A stretch of DNA of 64,000 bases from Moniliella sp. 'wahieum' (Eukaryota > Basidiomycota > Moniliellomycetes > Moniliellales > Moniliellaceae), in the NCBI GenBank assembly GCA_003971905.1, contig RSEE01000043.1, forward strand, positions 62,001 to 126,000, read 5' to 3'. Under the pieces are notes generated by a model. It was not told where the DNA came from, ran no database searches, and saw only the letters and a list, made by a program, of their open reading frames with translations. The translations under genes and the position numbers were made by a program. Numbering within the stretch: the stretch's first letter is position 1; every line of letters starts with the position of its first letter. This document shows positions 2,288-6,519 of the stretch, in pieces.

Positions 2288-5200
2288 TTAGACGGTGACC
2301 TTATGGGCGATCGCCATGGCCTGGTCGTCCGAGTGGGAGATGGAAACGATAAACTTGACCTTGTCACCAGCGGCCTTGAGTGCTTCGCCATGCAGTTTGA
2401 CCTGGGGGGGCAGGCCTTGGGTCGAAACGATCTCAATTTCGGCCATGGCTGCCGCCGCGCCCTTGGACGCCGTTCCAATCGCCTTGAACACGGCTTCCTT
2501 GGCGCAAAAGTGGCCCGTGAACGAAGCGCGAGCATCAGGCTGAGCGCGGCAGTAAGCCAACTCGGCGGGGGTAAAGTTGCGCCGGAGGAAGCATCATTGT
2601 CAACGGGGAACGTGCTCGTCTTCTCCACGTCAATCCCGACGCCTTGCACACCTCCAATCATACCGGCCAGCTGGGCTTCTTGCGCCTGAGCCTCCGCCGT
2701 GCCTTGGGCACCTCGGCTTCCACCGCCACGGGCTGGGCAGGCTTCTCGTTCTCAGGCGCCGGAGCCAAGGGGCGCTGGAAAACAAAGGTGCCATCGGCCT
2801 GTTCGGTGGCCCGGGCGTTGGGGTTGAGCAGCACTTCATCCTCCAGGTCTGCAGGGTAAGGAGGGTGGTCCTCAACCCGAACCAGGTCGTTCTTGGTGAG
2901 CATGCCATGCATACGCACATACGTCTTACCCAGCCGGCGACGACGCAGGCGATTGTACTCGGCAAATTGCTCGTCCGACAGACGGCCTAGGAGATGAGCC
3001 GGGTGAAGGAAGAGCGCAATGCCGCCCACTTGGCCAAAGCCAAACGAAGTGACCAGACCAGCGTGGAGGTCCTGCATCGTACGCTGAATCGAAGTGGAGT
3101 TGTAGAGCAAGTAGCGGTACTTTTGCAGTTCAGGGGAAATGTCATCCGCGTTGCGGTTGCCCGTCACTGTGGAGTACAAAAGTGACTGCATCACCCCATT
3201 TGATGCCCACGCGGCCGCACCACCCTTGGCGTGACCAAGGATCCACTTCTGTGCATACAGCGTACCGCCAGACCGGGGGTACGGCCCATGCGCTCAAAGA
3301 GGGAGTTGTACACTGCGACTCGTTTCTTGTCGTTGGCCACGGTCGATGTGCCGTGCATGGAAATGACCCACATCGTCAGCAGTGAGCCCCCACGAGGCGA
3401 GCGCCTTCTGCAGGGGACTGCGACGCCATGACACCGTGGCCGGGAGCTGGAACGGAGCGGCCTTGCTTGTCGGTGTGCGTCGAGGTGTAGGCCACAATAC
3501 TCTGGATGGGACACCCCATCTTGAGCGCCTGGCGGGCGGTCATGAGGATCTGCACACCAGCACCCTGAGATTCCATGAACCCATTACGGCTCCGAGCCGT
3601 CGGGCGCGACATTTCCGATGGTTCGCGACCAGCAGCCAGTTCCTCAACAGCGTTCGAGGTGGCACCCATGTTGGCAAACTCGTACGAACCTTCCTCGCAA
3701 GGTCGTCCAGGCCACCAGCAATCATAACCTTGGCTTTGCCCGAGAGAATGGTTTCGGCTGCAATCTCAACCGACTGGAGACCAGTAGCACATGCGCCGAC
3801 AGGGATCTTGACGGGGCCTGAGGCGGAGAGGATCAGCAAGTTGCACCAACCGGCGATGGTGTTGATGAACGTCTCCTGAAGGACATCTTTGTTCACCTCC
3901 GACTCTTGCCGGCGATCGACAAACATCTTGTGGAGAGAACTCATACCACCCATACCGGAGCCGAGCGAGGTACCAACCTCAGACGGGTGCACATACTTGT
4001 ACAGCTCGTACGCGCTGGCGCCCAAGCCCGACATGACCAGCGCTTCCGACAAACAGACCAAGGCCCAGAGAGTGATGCGGTCCACATTGTTGGCAATGTC
4101 GTCGGGAATACCGTAGCGCTGAGCGTTCCATCCCGTGGGCAGTTGGCCCGCCACAAGGCGGTTGAAGGAGATGGCTTTGGGCACCATGATGCGAGCCCCA
4201 CGCTTGAGCATCACAAACCACACGTCGCCCTCTGCCATGCATCCGCCTTGTCGCCGTGCTCACGCTTGAATTTAGTCGCCTCCTCGGCCGAGACCTCAAG
4301 AGGCTCAAGGTCATGGGTAATCTCAACCTCTTGAACAAACTCCTTCTTGGTCGGGTCGTAGCCACTGAGCATCTCGGGTTCGATCATTCGGACACCCGTG
4401 TGAGCAAGAATGTCCTTTTCATAAAGTGTCTTGACATCCTTGTCCTCCACCGGCTCGCCCGATTTGGCGTCGACCCATCCCACGTAGGGACCATTGGCGC
4501 CTGCCGCACCTGCGAGGGGACCATTGTGGTGCTTGATCAAGCCCATGATCCAAGCCATCTCAATCGCACCCTCCATGGTAAACTCGCCGTGCGCCTCCAT
4601 TTCCCAGCGGGTACGAGAAGAGCCCCAGGGACCCACCTCGGCAAAGCCAGTGCAGACCACAATCTTGTCCAGCTCATCGTCCGTCACCGGCTGGCCTGCA
4701 AGGCGGGCGAGCTGGGTGAGCTCCTTGCGCGGAGGAGGGGGGGGGCGGAGCAAAGCGGAAGTTTGCACGAGGCTGAACATAAACCTTTTGGTGCAGCTTC
4801 TCCGCCGCGGCGCCACGGATCACCACGAAGTCTGCCGAGGCATCCAAGTTGACCATCCGCTTGCACATCGCATCCTCCTGCAGACCCTGGCGCAGAGAAG
4901 CCGACTTCTCAGCCAGGTTGGGCAGCCGATCAAATCCACCGCCCAAATCCGCAAACAGAGGCTCCACCTGTGAGATGGACGAGAGGACGGGGTGCAAAAG
5001 ACCAAGTAGGTTGAATGCCATCTCAACGGGGCTAAAGGTTCGCATTCCCAGGTTTTCCAACGCCTGGGCGATGATGTTGCTCTGCTCCATCAGGCCCGTG
5101 CCACGGACCCAGCCAATGCAGGCACCCGTGATTGAGAGGTAGTCAGACCAACCCTCGGAGGCCCAACGGTTGGCGAGCGTCTCGAGACCAATCTTGGATT

Positions 5201-6519
5201 CCGAGTAAAGACCGTCGGAGCCAAACAGACCGTGGTTAGGCGACAGCGGCGCAAGATGACGCTGGTCGGGCGCGAATCAAACCCGTTGGCCGCCTTTTTG
5301 GCCTTGATCGCACCGAGGAGACGGATCACGTTGGTCATCATCAAACGATGGGCCAACTCCGACTTGTCGCCGATATTGTCAATGGGCATGCCCTGTTCCG
5401 AGATGGCGGCACCTGCGTAGACGAAGTCCAAGTCAAGGCCCATCGTGTCGTAAATGTAGTCGGCCAGGCTCTGCACGTTGCTTGGACGAGCCATTAAAGG
5501 GGAGAATCGTGAGCGAAGAACCACGGGAGCCGACTTCAGTGAAGATTTTTTGGTAAAATTCACACGTCTTGCGGCTGTACGACGAGGTGGTGATGACCAC
5601 CTTGGCGCCCCCGGCCAAAAGACCCTTTACCATCTCCAATCCGAAGAGCCACGGCCAACACCGGTGAGCTACCAATCCAAAAAGAAACAATCACATGTCA
5701 GTTCACCCTTCTTCTGGCAGGGAAAGGAGGAAACGTACAGGGCGTTCTTGTTCTCGAATGTGAGACCTTCGCGCGCCATCTCGTCCAACAAGGAGAAGTA
5801 TACGCTGGTCAGCTTGGCCGAAGGCTGCCATTTCCGGCAACTTTGCGTTGGATGGTGAGGAAAGATTGGCGGCCTTCGGCAAAGGCGCATCGACAAGGGC
5901 ACCGGGAGCTGGACCGGCAGTTGCAACCGTGTCGGATGGACGGCGGGATCGATGCGAGGTGGCAAAGCGCTTGGACTGGGGCGGGTGCCCCAGGGAAACG
6001 GATGGTTTCATTGTACAGACTCTTGATGGTGGCCTTGCCCAGCTTGCTGACGGAAGGCTCGTTGCGGATCAGCGACCATAGCTTGGTAATGTTCTCGTGC
6101 GCCCGCTCCGTGTTGAGTTGGGCGGCGACGGTGCCGGCAGTGCGGGTGCCAGTCTCCATCTCCTTGACGTAGGCCTCGAGTTTGCGCACACCTTGGCGCT
6201 TGACTTCGCGGTAGATAATGTTCCCCTTGGCGTCAATCTCGGTGCAGGGGGCGGTGGGTGCGTAGACCTCCTTCCAGAGCGGGGCCTGGGCGGTGGCGAC
6301 GGCCTCCTTGCAGTTGGCAACCAGCTCGGCGCCAAAGTAGTCCAGCAGCTCATACGTCGGGCCTTGGCCAGGGCTGATGGTGCTGAGCTGGGCCTGCATG
6401 AACTGGACCAGGTCGGGGTCGGAGCGGTTGATGATGGAGATGCACTTTGCGGTGAGCTCGCGGGAGAGGGCGCTCGACGGACCGTCGTGCCATGACGCAG
6501 CAGCAGCGGAGGAGGACAT
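2288..6519 (-). CDS. FAS2: Fatty acid synthase alpha subunit, KR-KS-PPT portion only
   Basis: Cytosolic type I fungal fatty acid synthase alpha chain. Domains in order: a structural segment (RKLEAYVKEM near 6180), ketoreductase (about 5650-5090, GLEMVKGLLAGGAKVV), ketoacyl synthase (about 4700-2750), and phosphopantetheinyl transferase (about 2660-2290, GVGIDVE and FCAKEAVFKAIG). The KS has the active Cys in VGACATGLQS (codon near 3790) and both His motifs (MHGTSTVANDK near 3360, LGHAKGG near 3200). An intron of 70 nt spans 5669-5738 (GTACGT...TAG). About ten frame changes (for example near 5645, 4230, 3690, 3430, 3190, 2640) behave as single-base losses. The protein starts at MSSSAAAASWHDGP, after the point where ACP and its following segment would lie in yeast Fas2. 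The 18-G run just before the ATG, and a divergent gene 900 bp away, leave no space for them. Family assignment is certain; the start is likely. Confidence 0.93.

What the first reader, a model, noticed from the sequence alone, without database searches (positions are those of the whole stretch)
2288..6519. FAS alpha gene begins after the ACP: an unusual gene split of fungal type I FAS
Seen: the locus encodes, in order, the helical segment before KR, then KR, KS and PPT. Upstream of the start are an 18-G run and, 900 bp away, a divergent elongase, so about 560 residues of a normal alpha chain (MPT end, ACP and following structural part) have no room. Known: the usual alpha/beta boundary lies in the MPT domain, and other boundaries or full fusions occur in some fungi. 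Inference: the ACP is carried by another gene here, so the ACP and the KS it must visit are on different chains. Alternatively this is a second, FAS-like enzyme.
Basis: partly seen in the sequence, partly recalled or inferred. Interest (0 to 1): 0.7.

Follow-up and report, generated by a model that had tools for sequence, protein, structure and literature searches.

The report
Fungal fatty-acid synthase, split after ACP
In this fungus the giant enzyme that builds fatty acids is made as two proteins cut at a different place from baker's yeast, so that the carrier arm and the condensing enzyme sit on separate chains; the same cut is already described in Cryptococcus and Tremella, so it is a real but known kind of arrangement.

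Summary
The gene at 6519-2288 (-) begins inside the helical domain between ACP and KR and encodes half of that domain, KR, KS and PPT. The missing part was found: one locus (contig C14 and its near-identical partner C19) encodes AT, ER, DH, MPT, ACP and the first half of the same domain, then stops. The chains abut at yeast alpha residues 425|427 (ends uncertain by up to three residues). The start codon is conserved in 4 of 4 short-gene copies, the stop in 2 of 2 long-gene copies. Identity between duplicated loci falls from 83-90% just after the ATG to 40-43% just before it. Of 270 fixed differences, 227 fall in the commonest codon phase of their 200-bp window. Frame breaks are almost all private to single copies, so assembly error is the simplest reading. 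The cut matches the published Tremellomycetes-type FAS split (yeast mimic cut at 427|428, functional in yeast; PMC6972935): a new member of a known kind. The host stays open. It is a fungus with no match to two flagellar and two B12 families tested; one enzyme fragment is about equally distant from a probable Cryptococcus and a probable Aspergillus chain. If it lies outside Tremellomycetes, the same cut arose twice.

The parts
2288..6519 (-). short FAS chain gene: C-terminal half of the helical domain, KR, KS, PPT; frame broken by mostly copy-private indels in this assembly copy
6517..6519 (-). start codon; conserved in 4 of 4 copies; identity between the duplicated loci 83-90% in the first 60 bp after it, 40-43% in the 100 bp before it (3 of 4 cross pairs computed)
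6145..6483 (-). FAS_I_H domain, profile positions 92-202 of 203; alignment begins at yeast alpha residue 427
5669..5738 (-). intron at the start of KR (GT...AG), present in all four copies
5249..5482 (-). part of ketoreductase (KR), yeast alpha 743-825
3699..4133 (-). ketoacyl synthase (KS) N-terminal part, with the stretch GACAT that I recall as its active site
2775..3254 (-). KS C-terminal part, yeast alpha 1576-1734
2366..2590 (-). phosphopantetheinyl transferase (PPT, ACPS family), profile 22-97 of 111
6527..6544 (+). 18-G run (C run on the gene strand) in the 5' leader; 21 long in C120, absent at this place in C16 and C4, so not part of the gene
7418..8279 (+). divergent ELO-type fatty acid elongase, neighbour of the FAS gene in both duplicated loci

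Best explanation
This is the short chain of a two-gene fungal type I FAS cut inside the helical domain between ACP and KR. The long chain, on another contig, carries AT-ER-DH-MPT-ACP and the first half of that domain; the short chain carries the second half, KR, KS and PPT. The two chains pair by completing the divided helical bundle, build the usual barrel, and behave like the uncut enzyme. ACP keeps both its tethers because the stretch after ACP stays on the long chain. PPT must load the ACP in trans, before the barrel closes. Shown here: gene anatomy, position of the cut, copy number, selection on the protein. Inferred from yeast work: pairing, barrel, trans loading.
For: ACP matches only on C14/C19, FAS-type PPT (the four best of 9 matches) and second-half FAS_I_H only on C43/C120/C16/C4. 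Long chain: 7 of 9 frames scanned match SAT/AT, Fas1 helical, meander, DH, MaoC and MPT families, then ACP and FAS_I_H 3-103. Long chain aligns to yeast alpha 305-425, short chain from 427. Same TAA in both long-chain copies. Same ATG in four short-chain copies, with divergence jumping just upstream. 227 of 270 fixed differences between the duplicated loci lie in the commonest phase of their window (counted from the table). Motifs sought are present: 4 of 4 in each of four short-chain copies, 5 of 5 in each of two long-chain copies. A yeast FAS with this cut assembles and complements the FAS-deficient strain, and a three-chain version is active (PMC6972935, passages).
Against: No transcript or protein data. 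Frames are broken in every copy (private non-3n indels: C43 16, C120 11, C16 5, C4 18; two more gaps of 1 bp are shared by C43 and C4), so function rests on comparison of copies. In 6 of 22 windows the commonest phase holds under 80% (offsets 400, 600, 800, 2200, 2400, 4200). The paper's text puts the four-helix bundle at the interface of KR and KS; the residue number of the cut comes only from its strain table, whose entry has an apparent misprint. The short chain has two loci against one for the long chain, a dosage mismatch that I do not explain.
Confidence: 0.92

Rival explanations
1. Assembly or annotation artefact: the upstream ACP-coding part was lost or collapsed at the G run and the gene is really of normal length.
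For: The assembly has many small indels, and an 18-G run lies just upstream.
Against: Four copies on four contigs start at the same ATG. Two of them have no such run at this place. The missing half-domain lies on C14/C19 with its own conserved stop.
Confidence: 0.02
2. A second, FAS-like enzyme or a decaying fragment beside an ordinary FAS elsewhere.
For: Frames are broken in all copies; there are two duplicated loci.
Against: No further FAS-type ACP or helical-domain match and no further copy of this MPT piece was found. Substitutions fall mostly in one codon phase per window. Frame breaks are nearly all private to single copies.
Confidence: 0.04
3. Two genes, one protein: messages from C14/C19 and C43-type loci are joined by trans-splicing, or the chains are ligated after translation.
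For: The cut is seamless (425|427).
Against: The long gene has a conserved stop codon and 9-13 residues beyond the aligned part; the short gene has a conserved ATG and 14-16 extra residues. Both look like finished ends.
Confidence: 0.02

Closest known systems
Tremellomycetes-type FAS (Cryptococcus, Tremella), PMC6972935
   Same: Two genes; cut in the helical bundle after ACP; ACP on the FAS1 side (PMC4393869 states this for C. neoformans); yeast mimic cut at 427|428 against 425|427 here.
   Different: Exact termini of the Cryptococcus and Tremella chains were not compared (sequences not held). The host's membership of Tremellomycetes is not shown; here the short chain has two duplicated loci.
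Ascomycota-type FAS (S. cerevisiae FAS1/FAS2)
   Same: Same domains in the same overall order; the short chain aligns to the alpha chain from residue 427 on.
   Different: Yeast is cut inside MPT; here MPT and ACP are on the long chain.
Ustilago-type single-chain FAS
   Same: Same domain order if the two chains are read one after the other.
   Different: Here it is two genes on different contigs.

Membership tests
Fungal type I FAS | All eight functions: AT, ER, DH, MPT, ACP, KR, KS, PPT | tested here: met
   families or alignments; ER rests on the Fas1 helical family beside it and on a recalled motif; motifs for AT, ER, DH, MPT, ACP, KS and PPT (motif names recalled)
Fungal type I FAS | Fungal-type scaffold domains (FAS_I_H, meander, Fas1 helical) | tested here: met
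Fungal type I FAS | 2.6 MDa barrel | not testable with these tools
   needs purified protein
Tremellomycetes-type FAS | Cut after ACP, in the helical bundle, at yeast alpha 427|428 | tested here: met
   chains align to yeast 305-425 and 427-529; against other solved chains the two ends overlap by up to three residues; site from the strain table in PMC6972935, whose entry writes the last part as fas2Rho, apparently for fas2Tre
Tremellomycetes-type FAS | ACP on the long (FAS1) chain | tested here: met
   for C. neoformans PMC4393869 (passages)
Tremellomycetes-type FAS | Host is a tremellomycete | tested here: inconclusive
   ACS fragment: best-scoring of 20 matched PDB sequences is 5ifi, but identity is 62.8% to 5ifi and 63.1% to 7kdn, these two 64.0% to each other (host names of the chains recalled); 5.8S rRNA unlike the tremellomycete one that I recall
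Ascomycota-type FAS | Cut inside MPT | tested here: not met
   MPT profile 50-306 of 319 in one open frame on the long chain, in the same gene as ACP

The most novel reading that the evidence does not exclude
The host is not a tremellomycete, and FAS was cut a second time, independently, within about three residues of the Tremellomycetes site. That would make this loop of the helical bundle a preferred place for natural fission of the enzyme, one that leaves the ACP tethered at both ends.
Probability: 0.5. Interest if true: 0.5.

Novelty: new member of a known kind. Interest (0 to 1): 0.33.

Why it matters
It shows a natural FAS in which ACP and PPT sit on different gene products, so loading of the carrier should follow chain pairing. 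If the host is outside Tremellomycetes, the same cut has been made twice. That would test the idea (PMC6972935, PMC7300031; passages) that FAS can be cut at several places without changing its assembly path, and would show which places evolution prefers.

Tried and rejected
Rhodopsin genes were looked for as a sign of Blastocladiomycota. Eight opsin-like matches were found; no guanylyl cyclase search was run, so the test was dropped. Flagellar families PF04712 and PF10274 gave 0 matches but rang in none of the 14 control genomes, so absence is not shown. B12 families PF01642 and PF02965 gave 0 matches, with controls ringing in 8 and 7 of 14. PMC8085122 (abstract and passages) says all non-Dikarya lineages use B12, so this favours Dikarya, though it also reports losses (Mucorales lack the mutase pathway; Neocallimastigomycetes have none). 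The 5.8S sequence first suggested an early-diverging fungus; I now give it little weight, because the comparison is from memory and another recalled sequence (Malassezia) fits part of it as well.

Paper searches for other lineages with this cut. Only listings were seen for most papers (one search listed 15 of 55, 12 of 84). In what I saw, the cut is described only for Tremellomycetes. PMC12014800 (passages) says nothing on it. PMC10629195 (passages) covers two Blastocladiomycota as outgroup without the gene cut. Bukhari 2014 was not read; the R. toruloides paper is not held. Structure prediction and fold search were not used, since solved relatives cover both ends.

Full report
What was claimed.

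The gene itself. Of ten pieces scanned, Pfam finds the second half of the helical domain FAS_I_H (profile 92-202 of 203, E 8.5e-25), KS and PPT in three of the nine FAS pieces, and an ELO elongase on the other strand; six FAS pieces have no Pfam match at E 0.01. Solved fungal FAS alpha chains match a KR piece (yeast 743-825) and the KS C-terminal piece (yeast 1576-1734). The N-terminal piece aligns to yeast alpha from residue 427. So 426 yeast residues, not about 560, have no counterpart in this gene.

Where the rest is. In a six-frame search of the whole genome (69.5 Mb, 223 contigs; best candidates only are scored) Fas_alpha_ACP matches only on C14 and C19 (4 matches). FAS_I_H gives 8 matches: the first half (3-103, or 3-91 in two pieces) on C14 and C19 directly after ACP, and the second half (92 or 97 to 202, on C4 in two pieces) on C43, C120, C16 and C4; no contig has both halves. 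The FAS-type PPT matches are on the same four contigs (the four best of 9 matches). Nine frames of the C14 gene were scanned and seven match SAT/AT, Fas1 helical, meander, DH, MaoC and MPT families. A 214-residue piece covering part of the MPT has 3 matches, all on C14 and C19. The end of this long chain aligns to yeast alpha 305-425, and the stop codon is at the same place in C14 and C19. The two chains therefore abut at 425|427 in yeast numbering. Against other solved chains the two local alignments meet or overlap by up to three residues, so the site is known to about that.

Is it real coding sequence? C43 and C120 are 95.9% identical over 12.2 kb, C16 and C4 95.0% over 9.9 kb, C14 and C19 95.8% over 12.7 kb and 93.7% over the next 7.3 kb. 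Between the pairs C43/C120 and C16/C4 only the FAS gene (about 91%), the elongase (about 87%) and, for C43, two short stretches of about 100-140 bp match at 80 bp or more. This looks like haplotypes of two duplicated loci. In three of the four possible cross comparisons, identity is 40-43% in the 100 bp before the ATG, 83-90% in the first 60 bp after it, and 90-95% further on. There are 270 differences fixed between the pairs. Counted by 200-bp window in the table, 227 of 270 lie in the commonest phase of their window, and 16 of 22 windows have at least 80% in one phase (for example 10 of 12, 24 of 24, 18 of 18); six windows are more mixed. The phase was taken per window, since frame breaks and the intron shift it. 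Indels not divisible by 3 are private to single copies (C43 16, C120 11, C16 5, C4 18), but two 1-bp gaps are shared by C43 and C4. Assembly errors are the simplest reading, though real decay of a single copy cannot be excluded. The motifs sought are all present: 4 of 4 in each of the four short-chain copies, 5 of 5 in the two long-chain copies (motif names recalled). The run of 18 Gs is in the leader of C43 (21 in C120) and is absent there in C16 and C4.

What it most likely does. It is one half of the only fungal-type FAS detected in this genome. By analogy with yeast, the divided helical bundle is where the chains pair; PMC6972935 (passages) describes the Tremellomycetes termini as intertwined in a four-helix bundle and finds it plausible that they pair during translation. 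That paper rebuilt the Tremellomycetes cut in yeast FAS. The construct complemented the FAS-deficient strain and formed the barrel, and a three-chain version was active; a version lacking the first helices of the short chain failed. Its strain table places the cut after residue 427, although its text speaks of a bundle at the interface of KR and KS. Here the stretch after ACP remains on the long chain, so ACP keeps an anchor on each side (inference from the domain map). PPT is on the short chain, so it must act on an ACP of another polypeptide; PMC6972935 argues that loading must precede closing of the barrel. These last steps are inference for this organism.

Is it new? The cut is the Tremellomycetes-type cut. 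PMC4393869 (passages) says that C. neoformans has ACP on FAS1. PMC7300031 (passages) speaks of six gene-topological variants. PMC10234402 (passages) reports that most early-diverging fungi have one FAS gene and places the split into two genes in Dikarya. So the kind is known.

Who is the host? The best EF-1alpha match aligns to a recalled yeast stretch over all 215 residues without a gap at 92%; by recall this includes the insertion that marks opisthokonts, and with the FAS it points to a fungus. No PACRG or radial-spoke match (no positive control) and no match to B12-dependent mutase or MetH families (controls ring) favour a non-flagellate, probably dikaryan fungus. For an acetyl-CoA synthetase fragment the best-scoring PDB sequence of 20 is 5ifi (recalled as Cryptococcus), which speaks a little for kinship. 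But identity is 135 of 215 (62.8%) to 5ifi, 135 of 214 (63.1%) to 7kdn (recalled as Aspergillus) and 132 of 214 (61.7%) to 7kq6, and 5ifi and 7kdn are 64.0% identical to each other, so no special closeness to Cryptococcus is seen. The fragment shares a stretch (GGFEHGDV.WFPEG) with 5ifi and not with 7kdn, which may speak for Basidiomycota. One intron was seen in the short gene; I recall Tremellomycetes as intron-rich. The 5.8S rRNA differs from the tremellomycete form that I recall. None of this decides the class. If the host is outside Tremellomycetes, the cut arose twice at nearly the same residue, which is the most interesting reading left open.

Noticed in passing
window 2288-6519 and its copies on C120, C16, C4: Small indels at a rate of about one per 230-850 bp, nearly all private to single copies: the assembly looks like lightly polished long reads, so other broken frames in the window should be read with caution.
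   Followed up: yes
C43/C120, C16/C4, C14/C19; also C8, C15, C23, C39: Pairs of contigs about 95% identical, and for the short FAS gene two such pairs: haplotypes plus an older duplication. EF-1alpha and opsin-like matches lie within about 35 kb of each other on four contigs.
   Followed up: partly
C14/C19 against C43, C120, C16, C4: Two loci for the short FAS chain but one for the long chain: unequal gene dosage for a complex that should need equal numbers.
   Followed up: partly
window 7418-8279 and the C16/C4 counterparts: The elongase gene is kept as divergent neighbour of the short FAS gene in both duplicated loci although nearly all of the other flank has diverged; possible shared promoter region.
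   Followed up: partly
G000: C21, C33, C37, C2, C6 and others: 14 matches to 5.8S rRNA with eight different scores, at least 7 of them within 3 kb of a contig end; rDNA units are not uniform.
   Followed up: partly
window 663-998 (+): By eye, a bZIP-like basic region and heptads in an open frame downstream of the FAS gene; not searched.
   Followed up: no
PMC6972935, Table 1: The entry for strain Sc_Asc/Tre lists fas2Rho where the text calls for the Tremella part; probably a misprint.
   Followed up: no
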